Source: Asaia prunellae JCM 25354 (GTDB taxonomy: Bacteria > Pseudomonadota > Alphaproteobacteria > Acetobacterales > Acetobacteraceae). Taken from it: a stretch of DNA of 64,000 nucleotides. Numbering within the stretch: position 1 is the stretch's first letter; every line of letters starts with the position of its first letter. A model generated the notes under the pieces. It was not told the DNA's origin and searched no databases. It was given only the letters and a program-made list of their open reading frames with translations. The stretch is from positions 124,001 through 188,000 of the forward strand of contig NZ_BAJV01000007.1 in NCBI RefSeq assembly GCF_000613885.1, read 5' to 3'. Both the position numbers and the translations under genes were made by a program. Shown piece by piece: positions 4,522-63,375 of this stretch.

Positions 4522-5491
4522 TCAAGTTCGTCATCTATATAAATTCGTATGATTTCCTCGAAAGACTCATCAGCTGTAAAACCCAGACTGAGAGCCCAAT
4601 GCGTATCGAACGCCTTGGGCCAGCTTGACACGAAATACTGCACGAAGGGATCGGGCTGTTCGCAAATGAGCTCAACAGCTTTACTCCCTGCCACCAGTCG
4701 CAACGCCTCGATTTCTTCCTCAACCGTGACACTCAGCGCAGGGAGTGTGAAAACGGGACGGGGACGGATCATGTCGTAATCGAGCCTGGCGGCATGGCGC
4801 AGTGCCCGCACAGCAGCACGAGGCTGATCAGCCAATGACGTGTTTCTCTCGGCACCGGCAGGATCGCTTTTTTGCCTGCAAGGGGTTCGCGAATAATGCT
4901 GGAGAAAAACCCTGATGCCGCTGCATTGGCCTCTCCTGGCCGTACACAGATGGTTGGCAGGCGTGGTGCAACGCCATCAAAGATGCCCCGGCGTGAATAA
5001 TCACTCAGCAGCAATTCAACCATTGCCTTCTGGACACCATAACTGCTCTCGGGTGTCGGGATCTGAGTGTCCGGTATGACGTCCGGTAGAGGACGTCCAA
5101 AAACCCCTATTGATGAAGCAAAGACGAGACGCGGCTTGTAGCCTTCTCGTTCGTGCAGGTCGCGAATAGCCTCAAACAGCATGAAAGAAGCATCGAGATT
5201 GACGCGATAACCAAGTGCCATGTCACGTTCGGCAGCACCCGACACGATAGCAGCCAGATGGAAAATGATATCCGGTCGCTCGACAAGGATCTTCTCGGCT
5301 TCCCCCGGGACAGACAGATCGCTTGCGATACAGGAAATCGTACCGCTGAAACTCTGGGGCCTTTCAGGCATCGATCGATCGACGAGCATCAGATGCGAAG
5401 GCCTTGGAAATAATTCCCCGACTTCCTTTACAAAATTCTCAGTCAGCTTCCGGCCCAGCATGCCTGCCGCACCAAGGATGAGAACCCGCAT
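4522..5491 (-). CDS. denD: DenD-like NAD-dependent dehydrogenase/epimerase (frameshifted)
   Basis: Extended SDR (NAD-dependent epimerase/dehydratase fold) resembling D-erythronate dehydrogenase DenD, which oxidises D-erythronate at C2. GAAGMLGRK at residues 8-16 binds NAD; the catalytic SxxxYGVQK is near residue 150. The frame from 5491 reads well to RETRHWL and then leaves the family pattern. The continuation ADQPRAAVRALRHAARL is in another frame from about 4832, where one base (probably a G in TGG-GCT) is missing. The C-terminal part SFEEIIRIYIDDEL ends beside a TGA at 4524-4522 that would be in frame if one more base were restored. In the printed sequence the frame instead runs on into the isomerase. 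The gene is 75 nt downstream of the LysR regulator. DenD identity is a family judgement and other hydroxyacid substrates are possible. Confidence 0.65.
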
Positions 5492-5566
5492 GATTTTCGT
5501 TCGTCCTTGTTAATACATGAGCATCTCACTGAGGAAGAACGAGCACGCAAGTAAAGTCGATAAGAC

Positions 5567-6507
5567 TTACCTGATGGCGCTATCGGATAATCTGATAGCC
5601 CGACGCTTTATTTCATCTGAGAGATATGTCATCGCCGGTGTCATGGTCCGATCACGAAGCCGTAACATGGCATAGGGTGTAAGAATATCCGGTAGAACAA
5701 CCGGCAATTCCCGGATAATCCCAGCATCTTTGAATGAATTGTAGACCGGACGTGAAAGCACTGCCAGCATGTCAGACTGGGTCAGGAGTTCGATCGTTGC
5801 ATAGATCGAACTCAGCTCGACCGCGAAAAGAGGTAACGGCAATCGCGCCATCGTGAATGCCGCCTCCAGAGCCTGCCGCATGGGGCTGGCTGCCATATGA
5901 GCAACCCAGCGCGCGTGTGTGAGCTCCCCCAGGCAAGTCGGCGGGGTCTGGTGAACCGGATTCCTGGCTCCCGCTACAATGACAAGATGCTCCTCGGCCA
6001 GGAGCTCAACAACAAGCATATCCGCAGGAATGCCCTCTACCGGGCGACCGATTGCCAGATCAATACGCCCCTCCTGCATCATCTCGATCAGGTCGTGGCT
6101 CGTACTGACATGAAGCGTGACACTGATATCCGGCTGGGCCTCGGCGAGATCTGAGAGAATGGGCAAAATGATTTCTCTCAAAGGTGCACTGATCGTTCCG
6201 ATGGCCACCGTGCCGGAAAGCCCTTGCTGAACGGCCTGAAGATCATGTCGCAACCGGCCAAGATCAGCCAGGATCTGCTGCGCATGCCTGATGGCTACCA
6301 GCCGGCACGTGTAGGAGTCAGCCCCTGCGTGTGTCGCTCGAAAAGCTGCACCTCCAGATCCGTTTCGATATCCTGCAGAAGTTTTGACGCAGTTGGCTGG
6401 GAGAGATTGAGAGAACGCGCTGCCCTGTTGAGAGCCGGTTCGCGGCCAATCTGGCGCAGTAACAGCAACTGCCTGAATTTGAGGCGGAATATCAGATTGT
6501 CGGTCAT
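5567..6507 (-). CDS. LysR-family transcriptional regulator (frameshifted)
   Basis: LysR regulator split by an indel near 6300. The N-terminal helix-turn-helix (PALNRAARSLNLSQPTASKL) and linker read from ATG 6507 to TPTRAGW followed by a stop. One extra base restores TRAGLVAIRHAQQILADLG, and the effector-binding domain then continues to DSAIR at 5567. The restored length of about 313 aa is normal. A GTG at 6543 would add 12 residues, but the HTH starts at its usual distance from 6507. The effector domain resembles the GbpR/PcaQ-like subgroup that senses sugar acids or aromatics (an inference from LRHDLQAVQQGLSGTVAIG). It lies inside the catabolic cluster between the porin and the DenD-like gene, on the same strand, so it probably regulates the cluster together with the LacI protein. 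Confidence 0.85.
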
Positions 6508-6553
6508 GATCCGGATCGTGCCGTCGAACGACGCTTCTGTCACTTCACGTCTG

Positions 6554-9874: not shown

Positions 9875-11319
9875 CTACAACGCGTCCTCCTGGGCCAAAA
9901 GATCACGTCCTCTGGTTTCGGGAATGTAGAAAGTAGCCACGATCGCGAGGCCAGCCAGAAGCACGACGTAACTGGCAAGCGGAATCCAGGCATATTTGCC
10001 GCTACTGATTCCGCCGATATGGAACCGTGCGAACATTGCAATAAGGAACTGTCCAACCATTGGAGACACTCCTCCCGCAATGACGGATGAAAATTCCCGC
10101 GTGAAGGAGACTGCTGTATAGCGGTGGCGAAGGCCAAACATCTCGGGCAGAAAGGCCCCCTGGGTGCCGAACATGCCCCAGGTCGCCACACCGAGCGCGA
10201 ATGACAACGCAATGGCTGAATTCAACGGATCGCCTTGGCTGAAAACATACCAGACGGGCAATGCACTGACTGCCTGAAGTATCGCGAAGCCACGATAGAC
10301 ACGAACACGCCCGAACCGGTCACTCAACAGACCTGCCACGGGAATCGTGATGCCTCCGACAACTGCCGCCCCGATAAGAACGAGCGTTCCCCATCGGCTG
10401 CTCATACCAATCGTATGGACCAGATAACTGATCGCCAGGACCTGATAGATCGACGAGCCACCATTTTCGGCCATACGCAAGCCAAGACCGGCGAGAATAG
10501 GCCTCCATGATGCAGTCAGTGTCTCCCGGATCGACATGACCTCCTCCCGACGCTCGTCATTCTCGATCTGTTCGAATGTTGGTGACTCTTTCAGACGCAG
10601 ACGCATGTAGAGAGCGATGACGAGGAGCAGCGCACTGCCAATAAACGGCACACGCCAGAGCATTGTCTGGGTAATATCAGGTACACCGGTCAGCATGACA
10701 TAGTAGATAATGCCCGCTGTAACCGTACCGAGCTGGATACCGAGAAAGGGAAGAGCCGCATAATAGCCCCGCCGCTTTCTGGGAGCTGATTCTGTCATCA
10801 TCACGGCTGCACCAGCCTGTTCGGCACCAGCACCAAAGCCCTGAGCCATACGCAGCAGAACCAGAAGCAGCGGTGCCGCTATACCGATACTCGCATAGGA
10901 CGGAATAAGGCCAATCAGCGCACTGGCCAATCCCATCAGCGTAACGGTAATCAGCAAGACTTTTTTGCGACCATGCCGGTCACCCAGCCGGCCAAAGACG
11001 ATACCGCCTATAGGCCGTACCGCAAAACCGATGAAATAAGTGGCGAAACTTGCGACGAGTCCCAGACCGGGGATATTGCTGGGGAAAAAAGAGGCCCAAA
11101 AACAAGGGCTGAAGCGAGACTGTAAAGGGCGAAATCGTAGTATTCCATCGCGCTCCCTATGGAGCAGGTCCAGGCTGCACGACGCAGTTCTGCTTCGGGC
11201 ATTTCGGGACGCGATAGAGCATCATTTTCGTCACTACCAACCGGGGACCGTTGCATGTCTGACATGCTCGCCAGGGTCTTGGCGGGGGCGTTGTTCTTGT
11301 TCATGGCAAGAGACATCAT
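9875..11319 (-). CDS. MFS transporter, metabolite:H+ symporter (MHS/ShiA-like) (frameshifted)
   Basis: Inner-membrane 12-helix transporter of the metabolite:proton symporter group (shikimate, citrate, alpha-ketoglutarate type). The N-terminal signature is SAMEYYDFALYSLASALVFG, with FGRLGDRHGRKK in the loop after helix 2 (frame following the break). The frame breaks in the A-run at 11085-11090 (T-run on the coding strand). One more T restores FGPLFFPSNIPGLGLVASF and a normal ~480-aa protein ending ETRGRDLLAQEDAL. The start ATG at 11319 has a strong ribosome-binding site (AAGGAG, 7-nt spacing). It is the first structural gene after the LacI regulator, with a palindromic operator about 150 nt upstream. 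Likely imports the organic or sugar acid used by the downstream genes. Confidence 0.87.
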
Positions 11320-13676: not shown

Positions 13677-14677
13677 GTGCTGACTCGACGCTCGCTAATG
13701 GTCGCTGTTACGGCCATTCCCTCTCTCTGCGGGAGCAGCGTTGCACGAACGCGCAAGCATCCGGCTAATCCCGCTGCGCAGGGCAACTATGCTGCGTTCC
13801 TTTCATCGCTTCGAGCTGAGGCGCTGGGTAAAGGCATATCAGGCTCCACACTTTCTCGCGCACTGGCGATGACAACTGAGCCAAATGCACGCGTCATCAA
13901 ACTGGACCAGCATCAGCCCGAATTTACCTTGACCTGGGCGCAATATCGCAAGCGTGTCATCAGTACGACGCGCATCAGCCAGGGGCAGGCTGCCCGGCAG
14001 CAATATGGCGCGCTTCTGGATAAAACAGGGAAGAATTACGGTGTTGATCCGCGCGCGATCATGGGAATCTGGGGGCTTGAATCAGGATTTGGCCGCAAAA
14101 TCGGTACTTTTTCGGTTATCGATGCGCTCGCTACCCTTGCCTATGACGGGCGAAGAGCAAGCTTTTTCCGCGGTGAACTGCTGAAAGCACTTCAGATCCT
14201 CGACCACGGCGATATCCAGCCGGAAACATGCTGGGCTCTTATGCTGGTGCCATGGGCCAGCCTCAGTTCATGCCCAGCGCCTATCTTCGCTATGCTGTAG
14301 ATGCCGATCATGACGGCAGACGCAATATCTGGTCAAGTGAACAGGATGTCTTCGCTTCTGTCGCCAACTATCTGCATGGTTCCGGCTGGCATGCAGATGA
14401 GCCATGGGGACAAGCGGTCAGGCTGACACAGGATATTCCCCAGAGCCAGCTTGGTCGCAGCAACAAGCAAAGTCTGGCAGCCTGGTCGACTCTGGGTGTG
14501 CGCCGGGAGGACGGTTCAGTCTTCTCCCGCCAGGATGTAACGGGTGCCGTCCTCCGGCCAGATGGCCCGGGTACAGAAGCTTTCATGGTCTATCATAATT
14601 TTGATGTTATCCGACGCTATAACCCGTCAGATTATTACGCGCTCGGTGTAGGATTGCTCGGTTATGAGATCGGTTAA
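13677..14677 (+). CDS. Lytic murein transglycosylase, MltB family (frameshifted)
   Basis: Cleaves peptidoglycan glycan strands to 1,6-anhydro-muropeptides. GTG start at 13677 with AAGGA upstream. Twin-arginine-like leader MLTRRSLMVAV, then the MltB domain with catalytic Glu135 in GLESGFGRKIG. The frame breaks at the AAA near 14224. One more A restores QPENMLGSYAGAMGQPQFMPSAY, a hallmark of this family, and the frame then runs to YEIG at 14677. Restored length is about 333 aa, normal for MltB-type enzymes. It overlaps the rlpA start by 14 nt, so the two peptidoglycan enzymes are probably cotranslated. Confidence 0.87.
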
Positions 14678-15529
14678 AGCATTCGTTTCACTGTTGGGCG
14701 CAGGCGCGACGCTTGTGGGTTGCCACCATCAGGAAACGACAAAACAGGCCAGCCCTCATTACATGACCGGACAGGCCTGGCAGGGGAGTGACTCCTGGTT
14801 TTATCCCTCCGAACGTTTCGACATGACAGAAACGGGACTTGCCATCATCCAGTCTCCTCCTAAAGACGGCGTTACGGCAGATGGTGAGATCTGGTCAGCT
14901 CAGTCAATGACCGGTGCACATCAGACCCTGCAACTCCCCTCTGTCGTGAGCGTGCGCAATCTGGCTAATGGCCGGATTGTCAGGGTCCGACTGAATGATC
15001 GCGGACCGGCTTCATCCGGGCGCCTGATTGCAGTTACGCCACGTGTGGCCAGTCTGCTCGGCATGGGTGATGAGCCGACACCTGTCGAGATCAGTGTCGA
15101 TGAGGCCGTCAGTCGGCAAATAGCCGATTCTAATCCGGATGCGCCCAAACTCGATATTGCCGCAGCACCGAGAGAAGCCATTATCGCGCAGTCTCTTGAC
15201 GACGGCAGCACGCATACGCTTGGCCTGAAATCAGGAGACAAGACCGACAGTTCCCGTAAATTGTTTCTGCCGAAATGCCTCAGACTGTCATGCAGGGTAT
15301 GGCCGAATCCCCCCTCTACCATATCGAACTCGGCAGTTTTTCAGGCCATGCGGCAGCCGCCCAGGTGGCAGCGCAATGTGGCGCGGAAATCACACGACAG
15401 GCAGGGCGGGCAGCTACACTTCCATGGATGGTTGCACTCGGGCCCTTCACAACTGTGCCCGAGGCGGATAGGGCATTAGCAAAAGCGCGCCAATGCGGTG
15501 GTATGGGCGCGCATATCGTGGCCAAATAA
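14664..15529 (+). CDS. rlpA: RlpA-like septal ring lytic transglycosylase with SPOR domain (frameshifted)
   Basis: Lipoprotein that cleaves denuded glycan strands at the septum. The lipobox LVGC sits at residues 17-20. A double-psi beta-barrel domain holds VRLNDRGP with the catalytic Asp. The C-terminal SPOR domain (SPLYHIELGSFSGHAAAAQ to GAHIVAK) binds denuded peptidoglycan. The frame breaks near 15273, where one base is missing (CCG-GAA-ATG or CCG-AAA-ATG), joining SSRKLFLP to the SPOR domain at 15275-15529. Restored length is about 288 aa. The gene lies between the MltB-like enzyme and a D-Ala-D-Ala carboxypeptidase (9-nt gap), a typical alphaproteobacterial cell-wall cluster. Confidence 0.87.
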
Positions 15530-17407: not shown

Positions 17408-18345
17408 ACAAAGCAGTTTATCCGGCTGTCCTGCCGCTGATCGGACACGAGGCCGAGCTGACCCTGTTTGTAAAAGCCCACAGGACCGACCGGATGCATC
17501 ATGGCTGGATAATCCATGGTGATACAGGCATAGGCAAGACATGCTTCGCCTTTGCCTGCGCCCGCATCCTGCTGAACGGGGCTGATCCACAGAGCCGGGC
17601 AGGGCGCCAGATCAGCGCGGGCACCCATCCCAATCTCCTCCTGATCACACGGCGCATGGACGAAAAACGCAAACGTCTGCGGCAGGAAATTGTGATTGAC
17701 GATGTACGACCTGTACAGGATTTCCTGCATCATACAGCAGCGGACGGCGCATGGCGCGTCGTTATCGTTGACGCCGCCGAAACACTCAATCGCAATGCCG
17801 CCAATGCGCTTCTGAAGCTTCTTGAAGAACCGCCCGGCAAGACCGTGTTTTTCCTGACCTGTCCAACCCCCTCGGCTCTGCTGCCAACCATCAGGAGCCG
17901 CTGCCGTCTTCTTGCACTTGACACACTTCCTGAAGAACAGACACGACAGGTTCTCCGTTATCATGGCCTGAGCGGGGACGAGCTTGAGACACTATCCGGC
18001 CAGGCTCACGGCATGCCCGGCCGTGTTCTTGAAACCGATCAGGGAACAGACAAAGCGGCGCGCGACCTTGCCAACGCTCTGATAGAAACCGGAGAAATTA
18101 CGGACCCTGACACCGTGGCGGGACTCTTGCGCCACGATGATGGTTTTGCGTTGCTGTGTTCTTTGCTAGGAGAAGCACTTGCGAACCGGGCCAGAACTCT
18201 GGCCGGGCAGGGAAAGCTGAACGAGGCCAGCAAGGCCGCAGAAGCCTTTTCTTCCCTTCAGGCGCTCCAGCGCGAGACAGAACGGTTCAATCTGGACAAG
18301 AATCAGGCTGTCAGACAGGCAGCCTCCATAGCGAGTGCCCCATGA
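17404..18345 (+). CDS. holB: DNA polymerase III subunit delta'
   Basis: 313-aa clamp-loader subunit, complete. AAA+ P-loop GDTGIGKT at 39-46; the mid-domain has VVIVDAAETLNRNAANALLK and LLEEPPGKTVFFL, followed by the sensor-like SPIRSRC-type segment TIRSRCRLL. Works with delta and tau/gamma to load the beta clamp. Start overlaps the tmk stop (ATGA) and its stop overlaps the metG start (ATGA), so it is translationally coupled on both sides. Confidence 0.94.
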   Translation: MNKAVYPAVLPLIGHEAELTLFVKAHRTDRMHHGWIIHGDTGIGKTCFAFACARILLNGADPQSRAGRQISAGTHPNLLLITRRMDEKRKRLRQEIVIDDVRPVQDFLHHTAADGAWRVVIVDAAETLNRNAANALLKLLEEPPGKTVFFLTCPTPSALLPTIRSRCRLLALDTLPEEQTRQVLRYHGLSGDELETLSGQAHGMPGRVLETDQGTDKAARDLANALIETGEITDPDTVAGLLRHDDGFALLCSLLGEALANRARTLAGQGKLNEASKAAEAFSSLQALQRETERFNLDKNQAVRQAASIASAP

Positions 18346-19882
18346 CTTCACGGTATTACGTCACCACTCCCATCTATTACGTGAATGGCGCACCGCATAT
18401 CGGTCATGCCTACACATCTATCGCAGCCGATGTTCTGGCCCGCTTCAACCGGCTTGACGGCAAGAATGTGTTCTTCCTGACAGGTACGGACGAACATGGC
18501 CAGAAAGTCGAGCAGGCTGCGCAGATTGCCGGCATCGACACGCAGTGCTTTACTGATGGTATTGCCAGGGATTTCCGCAGCATGGCTGATGCCATGGGAA
18601 TTTCCTATGACGATTTCATCCGCACCACCGAACCGCGTCACAAGCAGGCTGCCCAGGCATTATGGGAAAAGGTTGCGGCCAATGGTCATATCTACCTCGG
18701 CGCGTATGAAGCTGGTACGCCTTGCGCGACGAATGCTTCTATTCCGAAGATGAGCTGACCACCCATGCTGATGGCTACAAGACCGCCCCTACAGGAGCGC
18801 CGGTGGAATGGGTGCGTGAGCCTTCCTATTTCTTCCGTCTCTCGAGCTTTGAAGACCAACTGCTGGCACTCTACGAACAGCATCCGGAGTTCCTCGGCCC
18901 GTCCGGTCGTCGTAACGAGATCGTCAGCTTCGTCAAACAGGGGCTGAAGGATCTTTCCATCAGCCGCACAAGCTTCAGATGGGGTATCCCGGTTCCGAAC
19001 GATCCGGACCATGTGATGTATGTCTGGTTCGACGCGTTGACCAACTATCTTTCGGCACTCGGTTATCCTGATGAGAGCGCCTCGCGCATGGCTTACTGGC
19101 CTGCCTCGGCCCACATCGTCGGCAAGGACATCATCCGCTTTCATGCCGTATTCTGGCCTGCCTTCCTGATGGCTGCCGGTATTGAATTGCCACGATCGGT
19201 CTATGCCAATGGCTGGTGGACCATCGAAGGCGAGAAGATGAGCAAATCGATCGGCAATGTCATCGACCCGCGCGATCTGGTGCGCGATTTCGGACTTGAT
19301 CCTGTGCGTTTCTTCCTGTTGCGCGAAGTCCCGTTTGGCGGCGATTCCGATCTCAGCCGACGTTCACTCATCAACCGCCTGAATGTCGAACTTGCCAATG
19401 ACCTCGGCAATCTTGCGCAACGCACACTGAGTCTCATCGCCCGCAATTGCAACGCAAGCCTGCCTGCTTTTGATGTACTCAGCGAGGACGATACAACCCT
19501 GCTTGCCAGTGCTTCGCTTCTGCCGACGCTGATGCGTGGCCAGCTTGGACGTTTTGCCCTTACAGATGCTCTGGAAGAAGTCTGGAAACTGATACGAGCC
19601 TGTAATGCCTATATTGATCGTCAGGCCCCCTGGGCGCTGAAAAAGACAGATCTTGTACGTATGGCAACGGTTCTGCGTGTGCTGCATGAAGCACTGCGTC
19701 ATATCGCCATTCTGTTGCAGCCCTACATGCCCGGCACAATGGACAAGCTTCTTACCCAGCTCGGTGTGGCACAGGAAAAGCGTGATATCGCCTCACTGGC
19801 CGAAAGCCTCGTGTCAGGTACTTCTCTGCCGGCACCACAGGGTCTTTTCCCACGTCATGTCGAGCCAGAGGCGACCGCATGA
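18342..19882 (+). CDS. metG: Methionyl-tRNA synthetase (frameshifted)
   Basis: Charges tRNA-Met and is essential. Class I signature PHIGH at residues ~18-22 (TPIYYVNGAPHIGHAYT); KMSKS appears as EKMSKSIG in the second half. The frame breaks near 18711: GAA-GCT-GGT should be GAA-GGC-TGG, i.e. one G missing, restoring YEGWYALRDECFYSEDEL. Restored length is about 513 aa, the short alphaproteobacterial form without a C-terminal dimerisation domain. A broken metG in an otherwise normal operon is strong evidence for sequencing error. Overlaps holB and tatD by 4 nt each. Confidence 0.94.
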
Positions 19883-20661
19883 CAGGACTGATTGACACTC
19901 ACTGCCATCTTGATCGGCTGGATGATATACCGGCAGCCCTTGCTCTGGCTAAGGAGCATGGGCTGTCCGGCATGACGACCATCGGTACGCGCCTGTCACA
20001 TGCCCAGACACAGATCGATCTGACCCGTTTTGATAGCCCAGAGCTGCGTGTCTGGTGCGCCATCGGGACCCATCCTGACCATGTTGATGAAGAGCCCCTC
20101 CCTAATGTCGAGACAATCATACAGCAGGCAGAAGCCAGAAATGTGATCGGCATCGGTGAATCAGGGCTGGATTATCTTCACGGTGCGCAGCCTATACGCG
20201 CAGCCCAGGCAGAAAGCTTTCGTGTTCATATTGCAGCGGCGCGAAAGACAGGCCTTCCCCTCGTCATCCATGCACGTGAGGCGGATGCTGACGTTGCAGC
20301 CATATTGCGTGACGAGCATGCAAGAGGAGCGTTCCCGTTCCTGCTGCACTGCTTTGCCTCCGGACCTGATCTGGCACGCATCGCCATTGAGCTAGGAGGG
20401 TATATCAGCTTCTCGGGACTGCTGACCTTTCCAAAATGCGAAACAATACGTGAAGTGGCACGTGCAATGCCTCAGAACCGTATACTCGTCGAGACGGACA
20501 GCCCGTTTCTGGCCCCGGTTCCCAAGCGCGGCAAGCCGAATACGCCAGGCTATGTTGCTTATACAGCTGCGCGTCTTGCACAGGAACGGGGCATGGAAGC
20601 CCAGACGCTCGCCGAGCTGACAACAGAAAATTTCTTCACCCTGTTCGGGCGCGCTGCATGA
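19879..20661 (+). CDS. tatD: TatD-family metal-dependent hydrolase
   Basis: 260-aa TIM-barrel DNase/hydrolase. Metal ligands: IDTHCHLD at 4-11, Glu in IGESGLDY, His in LVIHAREAD, His in FLLHCFASG and Asp in VETDSPFLAP, all in family order. TatD proteins are 3'-5' exonucleases in DNA repair; the relatives linked to metG may process other substrates. Overlaps metG and the next hydrolase by ATGA, so it is coupled within the operon. Confidence 0.93.
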   Translation: MTGLIDTHCHLDRLDDIPAALALAKEHGLSGMTTIGTRLSHAQTQIDLTRFDSPELRVWCAIGTHPDHVDEEPLPNVETIIQQAEARNVIGIGESGLDYLHGAQPIRAAQAESFRVHIAAARKTGLPLVIHAREADADVAAILRDEHARGAFPFLLHCFASGPDLARIAIELGGYISFSGLLTFPKCETIREVARAMPQNRILVETDSPFLAPVPKRGKPNTPGYVAYTAARLAQERGMEAQTLAELTTENFFTLFGRAA

Positions 20662-36138: not shown

Positions 36139-39414
<3,276 letters not shown>

Positions 39415-48863: not shown

Positions 48864-48887
48864 CAGGGGCTCCAGAATAGCTGAATT

Positions 48888-49679: not shown

Positions 49680-51147
49680 TTATCTTGGTTTTAAAGCATT
49701 ATTTTCTGAAAAGGGTGCATATTCCCACCCACCGCCAAGAGCCTTGTATAGTGAGACAAAAGCTGTTGCGATCTGTATGCGATTGGCTGAAAATCTGGCC
49801 TCTGCCGCAAGGGCAGCGCTCTCTGCCAAATCAACCTGCAAAAAATCGACTGCCCCCTCACGGTATTGCTGCTGGGCGATTGATACAGCCTTGCGGCTCT
49901 CCTTCCAGGCTATCTCGGTCTGGATCAGTCGTTTCTGGGACTGGGCATATGCCGTCAAGGCATTATCGACCTCATTCCAGGCTGTCATGACGGTCTGATG
50001 AAAAGCCAGCGCAGCATCCTTTTGCTCTGCCTTGCGCAATGCGAGGGTCCCGCGCAGACGCCCTCCCTCGAAGAGAGGTACGGAAAGCGTCGGACCAGTC
50101 GCAAATTGCCGCGAGGGCAAGGAGAAGAAATTGGCCGCAGAAAGCGTCTGGGTCCCCATTTGTCCTGTCAGCGTGATATCCGGATAGAAAGCCGCAACAG
50201 CGACGCCAACGCCGGCAGTGGCTACATGCAGACGTGCTTCTGCCTCACGGATATCCGGACGTCTGCGCGCCAGAGCTGAGGGAAGACCGATCGGCGCCGC
50301 TGGAACAATAATCGGTAGCGCATTTTCCCGTCGCGCCAGTTCGACAGCAAGGCTGCGTGGAGGTTCATCCAGCAACAGACCGATCGCATTGATCAGAGCA
50401 CTCTCCGAATTCCGCAAATTCGGTAGAGCTGAGGCCGTATTGGCTTGTTCGGTGCGGGCCTGCGCCAGATCAAGTGTTGTTGCTGCGCCATTGCCAAACC
50501 TGGCCTGGACAAGCGCGACATCATGATCGGAAACGTCGAGATGTCGCTCTGTTATGGCAATCTGATCCTGGACACCCCTGAGTTGCATATAGGAATCGAC
50601 AAGAGTGGCGATAGTGCTGAGTGCAAGACCATGCCTCGCTTCTATTGCAGCCTCCTGCGTAGCGCGCTGCGCCTCAACGGCTCTTCTGATCTGACCAAAC
50701 AGATCAAGGTCCCAGGAAGCGCCAAGTGTGTTCTGAAAGAAGTTATATTCGTTCGGCGCGCCTGCTCTTGGTTCAACAAGAGAGATAAACCCGGTCATAC
50801 TCTGATGGGTGCGTGCGTAGGAACCTGCCCAGTCAAGACTTGGTAAACCCTGCGCCGCTGCGATACGGGTCTGGGAACGTGCTTCCTGAATACGCTGCAT
50901 CCCTCTTTGCAGATCAATATTCTGCACGGCCAGCCGGTCGATCAGTCTGTTCAGTACAGGATCGTTGAAAAGTTTCCACCACGTGATATCGACCGGACCA
51001 CCATAAGTTGCCCCGGCCAATCCCTGTGGCTCTTCGCCGAAATGTCGGTGCGATGATATCAGGCCGTTTGAAATCTGGCCCGAGTGTACATCCCGCCAGG
51101 ACCGCCATTGTCGCAATTCCGGTCAGTCGCCGTGCGAGAGTCTTCAT
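49680..51147 (-). CDS. Outer-membrane efflux lipoprotein, NodT/OprM family (frameshifted)
   Basis: Outer-membrane channel of a tripartite pump. ATG at 51147; lipobox AGC within MAVLAGCTLGPDFKRP. The core has TWWKLFNDPVLNRLIDR, RPDIREAEARLHVATAGVGVA and GPTLSVPLFEGGRLR; C-terminus SLYKALGGGWEYAPF. The frame shifts near 51041, where either one base is extra or two are missing (TTT followed by CGGC; PTFFGEEPQG would result with two more T). About 488 aa restored. Overlaps the HlyD gene stop by 4 nt. Last gene of the efflux operon. Confidence 0.88.
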
Positions 51148-52255: not shown

Positions 52256-53800
52256 TTATGAACATGAGACGGGGGGGAAAGTGCGTTGCGGCAGAAGCAG
52301 AACAGACAGCATCAGGCAGATTGTGATAGCCGCAATGATCATATAGGCGTCAGACAACTCCAGAACCGTTGTCTGATGTGCAAGTTGTGACTTGAAGGTC
52401 AGGAGAGAGTCGTTTGTGCGTGGCGTTCCATCTGGCAAGAAAGGCGCTGGCTTCTGGAGCGGAAGCGCGTTGGCCTGAAAAGTACGATAACGGTCAACGC
52501 CAAGACGATCTGTCATCCGATTGGAATGCAGGCCACCGCGCCAGCGATGAATCAGTTGCAGGAGCCATATCCCTATGGCCTGGGCCACGGCACGAGGCGT
52601 ATTGACCATGGCTGCAGCAAATGGCCCCTCGGCTGGCACCAGCGAATTTGTCGACATCATCAGGAGTGGCATGACGATCATGGCCTCACCGGCCCCCATG
52701 AAGATCTGCCACAGATAGAACTCGTTACGGTTCCAGCCTACCGTCATGAAACTGTCTCCGGCACAGGCCATGAGGATAAGCATCATACCCAGAAGACTCA
52801 CGACACGACTGTCAACTGATTTGCTGTTCAGCACAACGGCCATGAAAGGCAGCATGACGAGCTGGATACAGGCAATTTCCAGCGTCACGAGATAGATCTG
52901 CTCGGGCCGGTACCCAGCCACCTCCTGCAGAAAGCTGGCAGGCAATGTCGAAGAGGCTAAGGAGACGACAAGAAAGACCAGAAGGGTCGAAGCCCCATAA
53001 GCAAAATTACGCCGACCCAGAAGCTGAAACCTGAAAAGCGGCGTGTGCTGGTTCCATTCGTTATAGACCAGCAAGGGCAGACAGATCGCTGCAATAAGCG
53101 ATAACACGCATATGGCTGGCGAATTGAACCAGTCAAAACGGTCACCTTGCTGAAGAACGGTTGAAAATGCCCCGAAGCCAAACAGGATCAGCAGCGCCCC
53201 TTTCCAGTCAAACCGCGCAAAACGTTTGTAATTCGGCTTTTCGACGGGAATACCATACCAGAGCAACGAGGCTGCGAGACTTCCGAAAGGCACCGCCTGC
53301 CAGAAGACAAAGCGCCAATCAACCAGATCGGTCCATAAACCGGCAAGCGCCGTACTCAGATTGGGAAAGAATGTCGCGGTCAGGGAATAGGCTGCAAGAC
53401 CGTAAAGCCTGATTGGGGGGGCCAGTACTCTCAGGGCAGTCATCAGCACAAGCGGAATGGCAAAACCACCGGCCAGCCCTTCGACAATACGCAGCATATA
53501 GAGAAGAGTCAGATTATCAGTGAACGGAATCAGGGAAGCGGAAAGACTTGCTGTTACGGCAACACTGACAGCAAAACGCCGGACACCGAATGTTAGCGCC
53601 AGCCAGGGCGCAAGCGACATGCCGAAGATTTCAGCCGACAGATAGAGACTGTTGAACCAGGTCCCGGCATCGTGACTGATGCCAAGACCACCGAGGATGT
53701 CGGGAAGGGATTGGGATGAGACCTGCTCGTTCAGCTCGGTTGTCATCGCCAGGACAATCACCCCGGCCAGCCCGAAGAAAGAGCGCCCCTGTTTGGTCAC
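52256..53800 (-). CDS. DHA2-family MFS efflux transporter (EmrB-like)
   Basis: 514-aa inner-membrane drug:H+ antiporter with 14 predicted helices. N-terminal QSLPDILGGLGISHDAGTWFNSLYLSAEIFG is the DHA2/EmrB signature region with Asp in helix 1; motif C-like VGWNRNEFYLWQIFMGAGEAMI later. Exports hydrophobic or acidic compounds together with the HlyD and OprM-like proteins. First gene of the three-gene operon; 237 nt separate it from eda upstream on the same strand. Substrate unknown. Intact. Confidence 0.9.
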   Translation of the reverse strand: MTKQGRSFFGLAGVIVLAMTTELNEQVSSQSLPDILGGLGISHDAGTWFNSLYLSAEIFGMSLAPWLALTFGVRRFAVSVAVTASLSASLIPFTDNLTLLYMLRIVEGLAGGFAIPLVLMTALRVLAPPIRLYGLAAYSLTATFFPNLSTALAGLWTDLVDWRFVFWQAVPFGSLAASLLWYGIPVEKPNYKRFARFDWKGALLILFGFGAFSTVLQQGDRFDWFNSPAICVLSLIAAICLPLLVYNEWNQHTPLFRFQLLGRRNFAYGASTLLVFLVVSLASSTLPASFLQEVAGYRPEQIYLVTLEIACIQLVMLPFMAVVLNSKSVDSRVVSLLGMMLILMACAGDSFMTVGWNRNEFYLWQIFMGAGEAMIVMPLLMMSTNSLVPAEGPFAAAMVNTPRAVAQAIGIWLLQLIHRWRGGLHSNRMTDRLGVDRYRTFQANALPLQKPAPFLPDGTPRTNDSLLTFKSQLAHQTTVLELSDAYMIIAAITICLMLSVLLLPQRTFPPVSCS

Positions 53801-54037
53801 AGGCGCGCCAGACTGCCGTGAATTTCAATAAGAGCGTAGAAAAGGCACATTACTTTTTATTCGGCGCTTTAGGCCGAATTGGCAATTCCCCGAATGATAA
53901 AAATTTAATTAGTGAAATGATATCCGGAGCTGGAGATCTGATCTGAAATGCCGGTTTCGACTGTATCTTGCACAATGGCAGGATACTCTCCTGCGTGGAA
54001 TGAAAAATCATGTCACGCAGGTTACACCAAAATGTAA

Positions 54038-54658
54038 TTAACGACTGATATGCGCCGCGCGATGTGCCCGCGCTTCGACCGTGGCCGCCTCAAATCGCCC
54101 GGATGTCAGCCAGGAACCACCTACGCAACTCACTGCCGGCTCAGCCAGCCATTCCGACGCGTTCTCCTCGCTGATTCCACCCGTGGGGCAGAATTTGACC
54201 CGGCCAAAGACAGAGGCAAGCGCCTTCAAGGCAGGCAGGCCACCATTGGCCATGGCCGGGAAAAACTTGAACCGGCTCAACCCCAGATCCAGACCACGCA
54301 TGATATCACCTGCGTTGGCCACGCCAGGCAGCAGAGGCACATCGTGACGCTGGGCTGCTGCCGCGACTTCAGGCGTCAATCCCGGGCTTACAATGAATTG
54401 TGCGCCAGCATCGACGGCACGTGCGAGATCATCACCATTCAGAACGGTCCCGGCTCCGACATGCGCGCCCTCAACCTTTGACATCTCGCGAATGGCCTCG
54501 AATGCGCATTCGGTGCGAAGCGTCACTTCAAGCGTGGTCAGTCCACCCGCTACCAGCGCCTGCGCGATCGGTCGCGCCAGCGAGAGCTCGGGTATCACCA
54601 GAACCGGAATGACCGGACATCTCGTCATCACGGCGTCCAGCATTGTTGTATCGAGCAT
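54038..54658 (-). CDS. eda: 2-dehydro-3-deoxy-phosphogluconate aldolase
   Basis: 206-aa KDPG aldolase cleaving KDPG into pyruvate and glyceraldehyde-3-phosphate. IPVLVIPE with the catalytic Glu region, LEVTLRT, VGAGTVLNGDDL, and the Schiff-base Lys in LSRFKFFPA; C-terminal PTGGISEENASEWL. ATG 54658 has AAGGA upstream within the end of edd. Follows edd on the same strand, so edd-eda is the Entner-Doudoroff operon, which is the main hexose route in many acetic acid bacteria. Confidence 0.96.
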   Translation of the reverse strand: MLDTTMLDAVMTRCPVIPVLVIPELSLARPIAQALVAGGLTTLEVTLRTECAFEAIREMSKVEGAHVGAGTVLNGDDLARAVDAGAQFIVSPGLTPEVAAAAQRHDVPLLPGVANAGDIMRGLDLGLSRFKFFPAMANGGLPALKALASVFGRVKFCPTGGISEENASEWLAEPAVSCVGGSWLTSGRFEAATVEARAHRAAHISR

Positions 54659-54669
54659 CTGTATCTTCC

Positions 54670-56515
54670 TTATCGAGTTCCGGGCCGTGACTGTCCATCA
54701 CATCTTCCAGGGCAGCGAGCATGGCTGAGCCGCCTTTTTCGGCGCTGTCGGAACGGCTGCGCATGAGGGTGAACAATTCGCGCCCGGTCCCTGCCCCCGG
54801 CAGAGGCGGTTGTGCCGCGATGCGCCGCCCCCATATCGCAGGATCCACCAGAACTTCAATCTCGCCCCGACGAGCACAGATACGCAGCATGTCACCATCC
54901 TCGATCCGGGCAATCGGGCCACCTGACTGCGCCTCGGGACAGATATGAATAGCCGCAGGGACTTTGCCGCTGGCGCCGGACATGCGGCCATCAGTCAACA
55001 GCGCCACGCGGTAGCCCTTGTCCTGCAGAACAGCAAGTGCCGGGGTCAGGCGGTGCAGTTCAGGCATGCCATTCGCGTCCGGTCCCTGGAAACGCACGAC
55101 CACGATTACATCGCGGTTGAGCTTGCCTGCCTTGAAAGCAGCAATGACATCTTCCTGTGTATGGAACACGGCAGCAGGCGCTTCGATGGTCTGGCGATCC
55201 TCGTCAACCGCGCTGGTCTTGTAGATGCCCCGCCAAGTGATCCCTGAACAAGACGCATCCCGCCATCCTTACGAAACGGATCCTTCACGTCGCGCAGAAC
55301 ACCACGATCAGCAGAAGGTCGCGCAGCGCTGTAAAGCAGGGCCTCTCCTTCCAGACGTGCACGACAGGCATAGTCGGCAAAACCGTTTTTCGATACTGTC
55401 AGAATGTCCTGATGCAGCATTCCGCCTTCACAAAGGGCTGCAATGAGCGTCGGCAAACCGCCCGCTTCCTGCATCGCATTCACATCGGCAGAACCATTGG
55501 GATAGGCACGTGTCAGCAACGGTATGGCGGCAGAAAGTCTGTCCAGATCACTCCAGTCGATACAGATTCCGGCGGCACGGGCAATAGCAGGGAGATGAAT
55601 GGCGTGATTGGTTGAACCACCTGTCGCCAGAAGACCGACGGCTGCGTTGACGATCGCTTTCTCATCCACAAGATGCGCCAACGGGCGATGATCCTCACCG
55701 GGGCGGGATATCTCGACAAGACGATGAACCGCCTTGCGATTGAGCGCCTGACGGATACGACTGTTCGGATTCCAGAAAGCCGAGTCAGGTAGCATCAGCC
55801 CCATGAGCTCGACCATCATCTGGTTTGTATTGGCTGTGCCATAAAACGTGCATGTACCGGCACTGTGATAGGACGCAGCTTCCGCTTCCATCAGTGCACC
55901 TGAATCAACCTTACCCTCGGCATAAAGCTGCCGGACGCGCTGCTTCTCCTTGTTGGGCAGGCCGGAAGTCATCGGCCCGGCTGGTATAAGCAGAGCAGGC
56001 AAATGGCCAAAACGAAGCGCACCCATGAGGAGCCCGGGCACGATCTTGTCGCATATGCCGAGCAGGGCAACTCCTTCAAACATGCCATGACTCAGGCCAA
56101 TCGCCGTACCCATCGCGATATTGTCGCGCGACAGCAGGGAGAGCTCCATGCCTTCCTGGCCCTGCGTGACACCATCACACATGGCAGGCACACCCCCTGC
56201 CACCTGAATGGTAGCACCGACTTCACGTGCAAAAACTCTCATCTGGTCGGGATAGCGCGCATACGGCTGATGCGCCGACAACATGTCATTATAACTGGTG
56301 ATCACGCCCAGATTGACGCCACCACCGCGCATGAGACGGGCCTTGTCCTCTCCTGATGCCGCCAGCGCATGAGCCAGATTGCCGCAGGCCAGGCGCGGAC
56401 GTGAAATACCTTTCTGACGGTTGCGTTCCATCAGGGCAAGGTAACGCCGCCGCGACACGGCGGAGCGTTCGATAATGCGCTCTGTGACTGACGCAACGAC
56501 AGGATGCAGGGACAT
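54670..56515 (-). CDS. edd: Phosphogluconate dehydratase (two frameshifts)
   Basis: Fe-S enzyme converting 6-phosphogluconate to KDPG. Read from ATG 56515: AGGVPAMCDGVTQGQEGMELS (Fe-S Cys region), LLGICDKIVPGLL, YHSAGTCTFYGTANTNQ and LLATGGSTNHAIHLPAIA. The frame breaks near 55230 (GGCGGGGCA; one G missing), restoring LVQGSLGGGIYKTSAVDEDRQ and then VFHTQEDVIAAFKAGKLNRD. The printed last part runs past eda's start to 54528. One more missing base near 54680 would end it at a TAA (54672-54670) before the eda ATG, as adopted here. Restored about 615 aa. Divergent from the TonB receptor. Confidence 0.94.
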
Positions 56516-56815: not shown

Positions 56816-59745
56816 ATGGCCATTTCCCGCATTCGCTTCCGCCACGCTTCGTTACTGCTTGGAGCCACAATTCTTGCAGGCGTAAGCGTCACAGCACAGG
56901 CAGCCACAGAAAGCAGCACCGCCCTCCACAAGGCCCCTCACAAGTCAGCATCCAGACACAGCACCCGTGCAACGCCCAGGGCTGCTGCTGCGACAAGCGG
57001 CACCGTTTCATCTGCGACACCAGCGGTCGCGCGTCGCTCGGCTGCCTTGCGTAACCTTTCTGGCCCGGCCCCGGCAGGAAACGAGAGCATCACGGTCGTT
57101 GGTTCGGCGCTGAGCACGTCCAATAACACCAACGCCAATCCCGTTCAGATCGTGACGGCAAAGCAGATCTCCCAGACAGGCGTCAATAACCTGGGCGATT
57201 TCTTCATGCGCCTGCCTTCTGTGGGTTCCAGTGGCGTTTCAAACGCCGTAACCAATGGTGGCGGCGGCGTTTCCTGCGTTGATCTACGCAATCTGGGCCT
57301 TTCTCGTGTGCTTGTGCTGGTTGATGGCAAACGCACGACGGTCAATGGCGCCTCCAACTGCGTCGATCTCAACTCGATACCGATCCAGCAGGTCGCGAGT
57401 GTTGAAATTCTCAAGGACGGTGGTTCAGAGCTCTATGGCGCCGACGCGGTATCCGGCGTTATCAACATCAAGATGCGTCACGATATTACCACAGGCAATA
57501 TCACGATGCGCGGTAGCATTTCGCAATATGGCGATGCACCCGAAGGCATGCTCTCGGCCTTCAAGGGATGGAATTTCGATCACGGCAAGGGAAACATCAC
57601 CCTTTTTGGTCAGTACCTGACCTCGACCGGTGTCATGCAGCGTAACCGTGCCTGGGCAAATCCTGCAGCACAGAACAATCCGGTAACGGGACAACCGACA
57701 TTTGGTTCGGGCAATCCTACCACAGGCCGTTTCTACAACACAGCGGGTGATTCCTTTACCAGTCATGATAACGGAAAGACCTTCGTTCCTTTCGCCAGCA
57801 GCGATCGCTATCCGTTCAATCGCGATCAGAACCTGACAAACTCCTATCAGGATTCCTCGCTTTCCGGTGACACACATTACGATGTCAACAAGCATCTGAC
57901 ACTCTATGCGAATGTGCTTTACAGCCATCGCACCACTAACAGCTTCATGGCCCCTGTTCCGGTCAGCGGCTCCATCCCCCCAAGCTCACTACCCAGCTCC
58001 ATTCTTGTTCCTGCTGATTATCCGGGTAACGAATTCGGCGAGCAGATGCAGGTATATCGTCGCATGAGCGAATTCGGCTCCCGTCGTACCGAACGGGCTT
58101 CAGACACCGTCACCGGCATGTTCGGTGCCAAAGGCGAGATCTACAAGGGCTGGATGTATGACGCATCCTATACCTACGGTGTGAACCGCGAGCAGGTACG
58201 CACGCTCAATGTTGGTAACTATGCGAAACTTCTCAACGCATGGGGCTTGCGTGCGGATGATCCGGGTAATCCGGATACAACCCTCAGCTATGATCCGTCA
58301 GTCTGTCAGGCATCGGCTGGCTGCGAACTGTCTTCGCCATTCGGTCGCCTGACGCAGCAAGGCGCCAATTACGCGAATTATACGACCGTCGAGAATATCC
58401 AGTACCAGTTCCGTGATACCAATTTCCGCGTTCACAATAACCACGTTATTTCCATGCCCTGGAAGAATGGTGGAGATCTGGGTATTGCCCTGGGTATGGA
58501 ACACCGCAGCGAGCAGATGAGCGACAGCCTGATCCGCTGGTTCAGCAGGGTATTACCCTTACCAATACCCAGGCCTATGCCGGTGGCGGATTCAACGTTT
58601 CGGAAGGCTATCTCGAAGGCAAGCTGAATCTGCTCAAGAATGCGTTCCTCGCAAAGGATCTGACAATCGACGCGCAGGGCCGTTACTCGTCCTATAATAC
58701 GTTTGGCGGTGCCAAGAACTGGAAAGTTGCCATCAACTGGGCACCCAACCGGGATATCCGCTTCCGTGGAACGCTGGGAACATCCTACCGTCAGCCAAGC
58801 GTCTATCAGCTGTATAGCGGCCAGCAGCTGAGCTACGAATTTGCCAATGATCCCTGTGCTCAGGTCTCGAGCTACGGGGCCTCTTCACCCATGGTCGCCG
58901 CCTCTTGCGCACGTCAGGGGATCCCTGCGAATTTCACGATGGTGACCGCGGGTCAGGTTCCGACGCTGCAAGGCGGCAATGGTGCTCTCAAGCCTGAAAC
59001 GGGCCGTACGTACACTTTTGGTACGGTGCTCACGCCTCACTGGGTGCCAGGCCTCTCGCTCTCCGCTGAATACTGGCACTACACTGTCAAGAACATGATC
59101 AGCGCCATTGGAACCCAGTATCTTCTTGATCAATGTTATACTGGTGCAAATACCGGCTATTGCAGCGGTATCATACGCAACAACCAGAACCAGCAGATAC
59201 AGACCGCGTCAGCATTGTACGAGAATCTGGGCGGCATGCGCACGGGTGGTCTCGACCTCGATCTGGACTACACGTTCCGTATCACCCGTCACGATCGCCT
59301 GAGCCTGAGCAACAATTTCCAGCAGCTCATCAGCTATCAGCAGCAATATGTGCCGGGCGGACAATGGTTCAATTATGATGGCCGCCTGCTCTACAACAAC
59401 AACTCGGGGCAGCCGCGCGTGCGCAACTACACCACGGCAACGTGGCGTCACGATGCGTTCAGCTTTACCTATATGATGAACTACACAGGCGGCATGGTGT
59501 GGAACGACCAGTCTGTTGACCTGACAAAGGATACGGGTGGACGTTACAAGACACCGGGCATCTTCTCACACGACATCACGCTGGGATATCAGCTCAATCG
59601 CTGGTCATTCCAGGCGGGTGTGCGCAATCTTTTCGACAAGAAGCCACCCTACGTGGTTGATGGTGCCACCAATACCAACGTGTATCAGTATGGCAGCCTT
59701 ATCATGGGGCGTAACGTCTTCCTGCAGGCAGGCGTGAATTTCTGA
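56816..59745 (+). CDS. TonB-dependent outer-membrane receptor (frameshifted)
   Basis: Active uptake receptor. Signal peptide ASLLLGATILAGVSVTAQAA, then a basic Ala/Lys/Thr-rich spacer (residues ~30-85). The plug domain starts ESITVVGSALSTSNNTNANP and includes GLSRVLVLVDGKRTTVNGASN, VEILKDGGSELYGADAVSGV. The beta barrel follows to the C-terminal RNVFLQAGVNF. The frame breaks near 58540: TTC-AGC should be TTC-CAG (one C missing), restoring IRWFQQGITLTNTQAYAGGGFN. About 976 aa restored. ATG 56816 chosen from the signal peptide. Ligand unknown; next to edd and a sugar kinase operon, so a carbohydrate is possible. A strong terminator follows at 59773. Confidence 0.87.
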
Positions 59746-59803: not shown

Positions 59804-59808
59804 TGCTT

Positions 59809-59907: not shown

Positions 59908-61539
59908 ATGGATGTAGTGATTGGCGTGGATGTCGGGACAGGCAGCGCACGCGCCGGTGTGTTTTCCCTCGAGGGAAAGAAACTGGCGTCTTGCGTGGTT
60001 GCAACCAGAAGCTGGCGCCCTCAAAACGACTTCATCCAGCAATCCTCGGCTGATATCTGGGAAGCGGTCTGCAAATCTGTCCGTACGGCCATGACGGAAC
60101 TTGCCGGGAAAACACCGGTCGTACGCGGCATCGGTTTTGACGCGACCTGCTCCCTTGTCGTGCTCGATGGCAAGGGAGAGCCCCTTTCTGTTGATCCACA
60201 AGGCCCCGGAGCAGGATGTCATTCTCTGGCTGATCATCGCGCCATGAAAGAGGCCGCGGAGATCAATGCCGGTACATATGACGTATTGCGCTATGTCGGC
60301 GGTGTCATTTCCCCGGAAATGGAAACACCGAAACTGCTCTGGCTCAAACGCAACATGCCCGAGACCTTTGTCCGCGCCGGTTATTTCTTTGATCTGCCGG
60401 ACTACCTGACCTGGCGGGCTACAGGAGCTGATTCACGCAGCTGCTGCTCGACTGTCTGCAAATGGACCTATCTCGCTCATGACAAGGGGTGGGATGACAG
60501 CTATTTTGAAGCAATCGGCCTGGGGGAACTCGTCGAGGAAAAATATCGCCGTATTGGTGACATGGTACGGCCGCTTGGCGAAGTGGTCGGTAACGGGTTA
60601 AGTAGTGCCGCTGCGGAAGATCTCGGCCTCACCGCAGGTATTCCGGTCGGTGTTTCGGCAATCGATGCCCATGCTGGCGGAATTGGCGTTCTTGGTGCCG
60701 CGTCAGGAGATACACTTGACGACAAAGCCTCAATCGCAGTCTTGCCCTGATTGGGGGGACGTCGAGCTGTCATATGGTCGTTTCACAGGACGCCCGCTAC
60801 GTGGATGGGATTTGGGGCCCTATTCCGAGGCCATGTTGCCTGGCATGTGGCTGAATGAAGCAGGTCAGTCAGCAGTAGGATCCCTTGTAGATTTCGTCAT
60901 TACAACCCATGCTCAGGGACCAGCTCTTGCAGAAACCGCAAAAGCTGAAAACCGTACGGTCTATGAGGTGCTCAACGAACGCCTCGCCATACTCGAGCAG
61001 AATACCCTCCCCGGCTCACTGACGGCGGAATTCCACGTCCTTCCCGATTTCCATGGTAATCGTTCCCCCCACGCCGATCCGACATTGAAAGGCATGGTAA
61101 GCGGCCTTGGTCTTTCGGCTACGCTTGATGATCTCGCAAAACTCTATCTCGCAACCATTCAGGCTCTGGCTTACGGTACGCGCGACATCATTCGCGCGCT
61201 CAATGCCAAAGGCTATGCAATCGACACCATTTTTGCCACTGGCGGCGGAACAAAAAACCCTGTTTTCCTGCGAGAACATGCCAATGCCACAGGCTGTCGC
61301 ATCCTTCTGCCTCAGGAGCCGGACGCCGTCCTTCTCGGTTCTGCCATTCTCGGCGCGTCGCCGGAAATGTCTATGATGACATGCGCAGCGCCATGTCGCA
61401 GATGGCTCGTATCGGTTCCGAGATTGCTCCCGATGCGCGTACGAAACGTTATCACGATGCAAAATTTTCCGTTTTCCAGTCAATGCATCAGGAACAGTTA
61501 CGTCACCGCGATCTGATGCGGGAGGCACTCGCCTCCTGA
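59908..61539 (+). CDS. FGGY-family carbohydrate kinase, ribulokinase-like (several frameshifts)
   Basis: ATP-dependent sugar kinase of the FGGY superfamily, closest in style to D-ribulokinase/YDR109C-type enzymes. [16 protein letters not shown] at the N-terminus (phosphate 1 motif), [14 protein letters not shown], then [18 protein letters not shown] and the C-terminal [21 protein letters not shown] (adenosine motif). Breaks: a likely extra C near 60205 compensated by a missing G near 60230 ([14 protein letters not shown] restored), missing bases near 60741 ([12 protein letters not shown]), 60820 ([13 protein letters not shown]) and 61355 ([12 protein letters not shown]). Stop at 61537-61539. 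Restored about 544 aa. Precedes two ABC permeases. Substrate not determined. Confidence 0.83.
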
Positions 61540-61648
61540 ATCCTGTCGCCGGATGTCCGGCACGCTTCTGTCAAAGCGGCGGCGGGCATCTTCCGAGAGT
61601 TTTCGTCCACAGCCAGTACAGGCGGCACGTCGCCTGCGGAGCTCACCT

Positions 61649-62542
61649 ATGGAAGCCGTCATCGTCCCACCGAAACGGGTGAAACGTAAATCAGGCGCCG
61701 GATTATTCCTCTCCCCTGCCGTGATCATCCTGTTGATCTGGTCCCTGATTCCCCTCGTTCTGACCCTCTGGTACTCATTCCAGAACTACAATCTGGTCGA
61801 TCCAACCCTGAAGGGTTTTGCCGGCTTCAGTAATTACATCTATCTGCTGACCGATCCCGATTTTCTCTATTCGCTTTTCAACACCATTCTTCTTGTTCTG
61901 GGTGTACTCGTTATCAGTGTCGGTGGCGGCATTCTGCTCGCTATACTTTACGATCAGGATTTCTGGGGGCGAGGCATCGCGCGCGTACTGGTCATCTCGC
62001 CCTTTTTCGTGATGCCAACCGTCTCCGCTCTCCTGTGGAAAAATCTTATGCTGCATCCGATATACGGGGTGTACAGCGCATTCATGCGAGGTATCGGGCT
62101 TCAGCCCATCGACTGGCTGGCGCATTATCCCATGCAGACAGTCATGATGATTGTTGCCTGGGAATGGCTGCCATTCGCTGTGCTCATCCTGCTGACCGCC
62201 GTGCAGTCCCTTGACCATGAACAGAAAGAAGCGGCACGCATGGATGGTGCCGGGCCTTTTGCGCGCTTTCGTTACATCATTCTGCCGCATCTGAGCCGCG
62301 CCATTACGGTCGTGATCATGATCGAGACCATTTATCTCCTAACCGTGTTTGCTGAAATATCAGTCACGACGTCGGGTGGCCCGGGCATTGCATCGACCAA
62401 TCTGGCCTTCCTGATTTTCTCGCGTGCACTCCAGCAATTCGACATCGGTGGTGCTTCTGCGGGCGGCGTGATTGCAATCATCATTGCCAATATCATCGCG
62501 GCTTTCCTCGTCCGTGCGGTCGCCCGCAATCTGGAGGCTTGA
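61649..62542 (+). CDS. ABC transporter permease, sugar type (MalF/UgpA-like)
   Basis: About 297 aa from ATG 61649 (GGAG at good spacing); upstream in-frame residues are unsupported. Six hydrophobic segments including GLFLSPAVIILLIWSLIPLVLTLWYSF, and the EAA loop EQKEAARMDGAGPFARFRYIILP that contacts the ATPase. Intact. First permease of an importer with the next gene; no substrate-binding protein precedes it in the 109 nt after the kinase. Confidence 0.9.
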   Translation: MEAVIVPPKRVKRKSGAGLFLSPAVIILLIWSLIPLVLTLWYSFQNYNLVDPTLKGFAGFSNYIYLLTDPDFLYSLFNTILLVLGVLVISVGGGILLAILYDQDFWGRGIARVLVISPFFVMPTVSALLWKNLMLHPIYGVYSAFMRGIGLQPIDWLAHYPMQTVMMIVAWEWLPFAVLILLTAVQSLDHEQKEAARMDGAGPFARFRYIILPHLSRAITVVIMIETIYLLTVFAEISVTTSGGPGIASTNLAFLIFSRALQQFDIGGASAGGVIAIIIANIIAAFLVRAVARNLEA

Positions 62543-62546
62543 GATC

Positions 62547-63375
62547 ATGTCTCGCAAGTCAAAGCGTCTGCCCAAGATTGCGCTAGGCCTCGTGGGCTGG
62601 GCCGTAGCCATCTGGATCTTCTTTCCAATTTTCTGGATGGTTCTGACGGGCTTCAAAAGCGAGATGGATGCCATCTCGACTCCCCCTCATCTTTTCTTTC
62701 ATCCAACTCTCCAGAGCTATCATGACGTATTTGCCCAGGAGAATTACTGGCATTTCACGTTCAATACTGTGTTCATGTCAGTGCTTGCCACGGGGGGGAG
62801 CGCTTCTTCTGGGCGTACCGGCCGCCTATTCCATGGCCTTCTTTCCCGGCAAACGCACCCGCGGCACGCTGCTCTGGATGCTCTCCACCCGCATGCTACC
62901 GCCGGTTGGGGTATTGGTGCCGGTCTATCTGATTGCCAAGTCAACGCATCTTCTCGATACGGTAATCGGTCTGGCAATTATCAACATGCTTACCAACCTG
63001 CCTATCATCGTCTGGATGCTCTATACCTTCTTCAAGGAAGTGCCTGTGCCTATCCTCGAAGCCGGACGTATGGACGGAGCCAATCGCTGGCAGGAAATCA
63101 GTATTGTCCTCTTGCCGCTCGCCCTGCCCGGAATTGCCTCCACCGCCCTGCTCTCTCTCATTCTGTGCTGGAACGAGGCTTTCTGGTCGCTCAATCTGAC
63201 CTCTTCGAATGCAGCGCCTCTGGCAAGTTTCATTGCCTCTTTTTCCTCTCCGGAAGGGCTGTTCTTCGCCAAGCTTTCGGCAGCCTCTACCCTCGCTGTC
63301 GCCCCCATCCTGATCTTTGGCTGGTTCAGCCAGAAACAGCTCGTACGCGGCCTGACTTTTGGTGCCGTGAAATGA
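62547..63375 (+). CDS. ABC transporter permease, sugar type (MalG/UgpE-like) (frameshifted)
   Basis: Second membrane subunit. ATG 62547 with GGAGG 8 nt upstream. N-terminal TM segment WAVAIWIFFPIFWMVLTGFKSE; EAA loop in VPVPILEAGRMDGANRWQEISIVLLPL. The frame breaks in a run of seven G (62792-62798), where one G seems extra; with six, LATGGALLLGVPAAYSMAFF is restored. About 276 aa. Ends LTFGAVK, typical of MalG-like permeases. 4 nt after the first permease's stop. Confidence 0.9.

What the first reader, a model, noticed from the sequence alone, without database searches (positions are those of the whole stretch)
4522..63375. About twenty genes broken by small indels: uncorrected sequencing error, not gene decay
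denD-like, lysR, MHS transporter, mltB-like, rlpA, metG, MBL hydrolase, spoVR, thiG, thiO, glmU, gyrB, clpB, AGE isomerase, purH, outer-membrane lipoprotein, edd, TonB receptor, FGGY kinase and the second ABC permease each leave their frame at a definite point. In nearly all, a one-base change restores a conserved sequence. I counted roughly 30 events: mostly single missing bases, two double losses (spoVR ~25823, clpB ~40819), and a few probable extra bases (FGGY ~60205, permease ~62795, lipoprotein ~51041). Many sit in short homopolymers such as A6, G7, AAA and TTT. Essential genes (gyrB, metG, glmU) are hit as often as accessory ones. Protein-level conclusions should therefore use the repaired frames.
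Basis: partly seen in the sequence, partly recalled or inferred. Interest (0 to 1): 0.7.

Follow-up and report, generated by a model that had tools for sequence, protein, structure and literature searches.

The report
Sequencing-error frameshifts in an Asaia draft
About twenty genes in this stretch of an acetic acid bacterium look broken, but the breaks are almost certainly base-calling errors in a draft genome and not decaying genes, so gene counts taken from this draft and similar ones should be treated with care.

Summary
Every reference tested agrees on every break. The same region of the five relatives shows none under a strict filter.

Error, not decay, is the supported reading. The rate is the same in other stretches of this genome (55 breaks in 35 of 119 genes). 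gyrB, metG, purH, rpoC and tuf are hit; conserved genes are hit at least as often as others; broken and intact genes show equal purifying selection. Two sister drafts from the JCM collection carry the same damage; the other drafts show none or little. The window is probably A. prunellae JCM 25354 (inferred).

One correction: long homopolymers are a minority. Most events are one-base losses from runs of 1-3, often C/G, and 3 of 28 sites recur in the A. platycodi JCM draft. This resembles the "high-frequency indels" described for Ion Torrent PGM, a platform stated for two other drafts of the JCM programme. I did not see the platform stated for the Asaia drafts.

The parts
3486..5491 (-). D-erythronate dehydrogenase-like / xylose-isomerase-like TIM barrel gene (one ORF of 668-670 aa in two relatives); one frame break, net -1
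5567..6507 (-). LysR-family regulator; one break, net -1
9875..11319 (-). MHS-type metabolite:H+ symporter; one break, net -1
13677..14677 (+). MltB-like lytic transglycosylase; one break, net -1
14640..15526 (+). RlpA-like gene; one break, net -1
18156..19882 (+). methionyl-tRNA synthetase (metG); one break, net -1; the site recurs in the A. platycodi draft
20658..21433 (+). MBL-fold hydrolase; one break, net -1
24862..26495 (+). SpoVR-family gene; three breaks; one site recurs in the A. platycodi draft
30050..30819 (-). thiG; one break, net -1
31125..32202 (-). thiO (glycine oxidase); one break, net -1
33879..35338 (-). glmU; one break near the 5' end, net -1
36965..39414 (-). gyrB; one break mid-gene, net -1
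40783..43311 (-). clpB; one break near the 3' end, net -2
45216..46503 (+). AGE/D-mannose isomerase-family gene; two breaks, both net -1
47284..48875 (-). purH; one break, net -1
49680..51116 (-).
52256..53818 (-).
54531..56515 (-). edd (phosphogluconate dehydratase); one break, net -1
56816..59745 (+). TonB-dependent receptor; one break, net -1
59908..61533 (+). FGGY-family carbohydrate kinase; five breaks; one site recurs in the A. platycodi draft
62472..63375 (+). ABC transporter inner-membrane permease; one break, net +1, at a long G run

Best explanation
The breaks are base-calling errors left in the consensus of a draft genome, very probably Asaia prunellae JCM 25354. The likely source is Ion Torrent PGM flow sequencing: at certain short sequence contexts most reads drop one base from a run of one to three bases (mostly C or G), the assembler takes the majority call, and genes are struck roughly in proportion to their length. 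Shown: the breaks, their similar rate in all stretches compared, their net-loss bias, their lack of respect for essential or conserved genes, equal purifying selection in broken and intact window genes, and the same damage in two sister JCM drafts but none or little in the other genomes. Inferred: the strain name, the platform, the read-level mechanism, and that the living strain carries intact genes.
For: Window 28 events/20,602 codons (1.36 per 1000, 95% 0.90-1.96); five other stretches of the same genome 58/46,733 (1.24, 0.94-1.60). There rpoC is broken twice and tuf once. Over 167 strictly filtered genes of this genome, 83 events hit 56 genes against 61.5 expected for random hits by length; genes at >=93% identity to relatives are hit at 1.56 per 1000 codons, others at 1.14. 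Median dN/dS 0.047 in 21 broken and 0.050 in 27 intact window genes, 1 and 5 saturated genes left out of the medians. JCM sister drafts: A. platycodi JCM 25414 30 events in 22 of 44 genes (29 distinct; one lies in a gene overlap), A. astilbis JCM 15831 9 in 8 of 25; against G005 0 of 148, G001 0 of 142, G002 0 of 12 outside the window region. Losses come from runs of >=2 in 60% of 109 net -1 events against 39% of simulated random deletions (P about 1e-5). PGM high-frequency indels: about one per 1-2 kb of reference; strand-asymmetric ones 82% in runs of 2-3 and mostly C/G deletions (PMC3623719, passages). Two other drafts of the JCM programme state Ion Torrent PGM + Newbler 2.8 (PMC3931363, PMC4064037, passages).
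Against: No reads and no second assembly of this strain were available. The platform of the Asaia drafts was not seen in any paper. Events are somewhat more clustered than random (dispersion 1.39, null 0.78-1.28, P 0.006), partly through the FGGY kinase (5 events, P 0.0008 for that gene alone; about 0.13 over 167 genes). Three of the 14 events on contig C33 fall upstream of the S12 domain of rpsL, in an extension of the reference ORFs, and may not be coding. The PGM paper finds insertions commoner than deletions in reads, and A/T insertions among high-frequency indels, and only 29% of the latter in homopolymers; here net insertions are 3 of 83, so the match is to the strand-asymmetric class only. 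A 2025 comparison of Ion Torrent with Illumina reports longer runs (mean 5.5, runs of at least three counted) and mostly adenine (PMC12046094, passages), unlike the short C/G runs here. Other drafts are not perfectly clean: A. siamensis 8 events in 6 of 134 genes and A. krungthepensis 2 in 2 of 55 outside the window region, Swaminathania 1 in 14 genes.
Confidence: 0.96

Rival explanations
1. Real gene decay: the genes are pseudogenes in a lineage under relaxed selection, as in a host-restricted symbiont.
For: The frames are broken as printed, and the references are intact at those places.
Against: No consensus in-frame stops; dN/dS equal in broken and intact window genes; gyrB, metG, purH, rpoC and tuf hit; similar rate in all stretches compared; damage tracks the source of the assembly and not identity between species.
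Confidence: 0.01
2. A mismatch-repair-deficient or otherwise hypermutable lineage with real recent one-base losses. This is the alternative that PMC4596401 leaves open in print for the A. [quoted passage not shown]
For: mutL of this genome is itself in a short frame (237 aa against 617-629 in its five congeners), and mutS is split between two contigs.
Against: mutS is cut by a contig end (C24 ends at 80451), and the larger piece on C15 (697 codons) shows no frame break; the short piece on C24 was not among the tested genes. mutL is hit once, about what its length predicts. Recent slippage would favour long runs, which is not seen, and selection would still spare essential genes.
Confidence: 0.015
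3. A minority of the events are real (the FGGY kinase with five breaks, or the sites that recur between drafts), within a background of error.
For: FGGY has 5 events where 0.7 are expected, and 2 and 1 events in the two sister drafts. Three sites recur between the window genome and A. platycodi (expected 0.31, P 0.004).
Against: A. siamensis has metG, spoVR and the FGGY kinase unbroken. The recurring sites include metG. Enriched contexts around events (such as GCTTCG: 10 of 108 against 1.5 expected) give a technical reason for recurrence.
Confidence: 0.1

Closest known systems
Ion Torrent PGM high-frequency indel (HFI) errors (PMC3623719, passages)
   Same: Mostly single-base indels, about one per 1-2 kb, C/G deletions in runs of two to three prominent in the strand-asymmetric class, some sites recurring, suspected context dependence
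   Different: There measured in reads against a known reference; here inferred in a consensus from relatives. A/T insertions are common there and net insertions are rare here (3 of 83 in this genome). The platform is not confirmed for this assembly.
RefSeq exclusion class 'many frameshifted proteins' (PMC7604302, PMC10228379; passages)
   Same: Many broken genes from sequencing error; Ion Torrent assemblies make up over half of the cases
   Different: Whether this assembly bears that flag was not seen
The 'mutated' cyo operon of A. astilbis JCM 15831 (PMC4596401, passages)
   Same: Damage in a sister draft, with error suggested by its authors
   Different: They left error and high mutation rate open; the tests here favour error. 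The cyo genes themselves were not examined here.

Membership tests
Sequencing-error frameshifts | Absent from closely related, independently sequenced genomes | tested here: met
   Strict filter, window region: 0 events in 55, 53, 31, 56 and 54 genes of five relatives; but 3 of 28 sites recur in a sister JCM draft
Sequencing-error frameshifts | Uniform rate across the assembly, blind to gene importance | tested here: met
   1.36 against 1.24 per 1000 codons; conserved genes hit at least as often; mild over-dispersion remains; only part of the genome was compared
Sequencing-error frameshifts | Raw reads disagree with the consensus | not testable with these tools
   no reads available
Ion Torrent PGM HFI errors | Enriched in runs of 2-3 with C/G deletions (strand-asymmetric class) | tested here: met
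   60% in runs of >=2 against 39% simulated; C+G 73% of 109 losses against 67% placed in simulation, so the base bias itself is slight
Ion Torrent PGM HFI errors | A/T insertions also common | tested here: not met
   net insertions 3 of 83 events in this genome, 0 of 39 in G006 and G007
Ion Torrent PGM HFI errors | Assembly made from PGM reads | not testable with these tools
   Stated for two other JCM drafts of the programme; not seen for Asaia
Pseudogenes | Relaxed selection or accumulated nonsense changes | tested here: not met
   dN/dS 0.047 against 0.050; 0 consensus in-frame stops
Homopolymer slippage in a mismatch-repair mutant | Concentrated in long homopolymers | tested here: not met
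   runs of >=6 near 3 of 28 events in the window, 0 of 55 elsewhere

The most novel reading that the evidence does not exclude
The sites that recur between the A. prunellae-like and A. platycodi drafts (metG, spoVR, FGGY kinase) are real, independently fixed one-base losses at slippery contexts that the cells tolerate by frame slippage in translation or transcription.
Probability: 0.01. Interest if true: 0.8.

Novelty: not a real feature. Interest (0 to 1): 0.15.

Why it matters
Biologically it is ordinary: an artefact. In practice it matters because three Asaia species were compared in print through drafts of this kind. PMC8156966 Table 1 lists 3482-3774 CDS for these 3.15-3.18 Mb drafts against 2896 for the 3.20 Mb A. 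bogorensis NBRC 16594, reports fewer glycosyltransferases or carbohydrate esterases in A. astilbis and A. platycodi, and one cyo operon set in A. astilbis (passages). Part of those differences is probably frame breakage (inference). The same caution may apply to other drafts of the JCM programme.

Tried and rejected

Long-homopolymer explanation: tested with simulated deletions and found weak. A k-mer test against unbroken background was replaced by one against simulated deletions; the context signal survives only modestly (best 6-mer P 3.6e-6 over 2080 tests).

Mutator explanation: mutS and mutL checked, disfavoured. tRNA and Rfam scans of the window: nothing. Paper searches that could have given the platform of the Asaia drafts did not.

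Rows dropped: gene clusters with a reference from one genome only (four) were not counted. The strict filter (at least 80 codons, identity over 0.65, no in-frame stop) removed 1 of 49 window genes and no window event; it removed 3 of 58 events in the other G000 stretches, 1 of 10 in G006, the single G005 event, and 2 of 10 in G003 outside the window region. The run-length test used 72 of 83 events of this genome and 37 of 39 of its kin (net -1 only). One A. platycodi event in a gene overlap was counted in two genes; it was merged only. The tree rests on five genes, and its A. platycodi + A. siamensis node has support 0.50.
Full report
What the window is. The window lies in a 192,977-base contig of a 3,179,680-base, 38-contig genome. 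A search with one window protein places it in Asaia (Acetobacteraceae), closest to A. platycodi and A. siamensis (86% identity in the best segment). Genome size and window GC (about 55.5%) fit A. prunellae JCM 25354, listed at 3.18 Mb and 55.8% GC (PMC8156966 Table 1, passages). The strain name is an inference. Contig lengths identify G002 as A. lannensis NBRC 102526, G001 as A. bogorensis GD-01, G004 as A. krungthepensis NRIC 0535, G003 as A. siamensis CCM 7132, G006 as A. astilbis JCM 15831 and G007 as A. platycodi JCM 25414.

Noticed in passing
window 3486-5491: In two relatives (G003, G004) the D-erythronate dehydrogenase-like part and a xylose-isomerase-like TIM barrel form one ORF of 668-670 aa, so this gene looks like a natural fusion of two sugar-acid enzymes.
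   Followed up: partly
L028 about 7819 and L035 about 7818: A. platycodi JCM 25414 and A. astilbis JCM 15831 drafts share a break in the overlap of two genes (one is the edd counterpart) that was not called in the window or in A. siamensis; a recurrent error site or a real difference at the overlap.
   Followed up: partly
G000 contigs C24 (end at 80451) and C15 (start): mutS of this genome is split at a contig end, so the two contigs are probably neighbours.
   Followed up: partly
A. siamensis (G003) loci L085-L090, L118-L119, L017: Eight apparent frame changes in 6 of 134 strictly filtered genes in this non-JCM draft; several genes are short or were tested with only two references.
   Followed up: no
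PMC8156966 Table 1: The A. prunellae JCM 25354 row bears the same GenBank accession as A. bogorensis IPC-01 (GCA_900465315.1), apparently a slip; PMC4596401 gives GCF_000613885.1.
   Followed up: no
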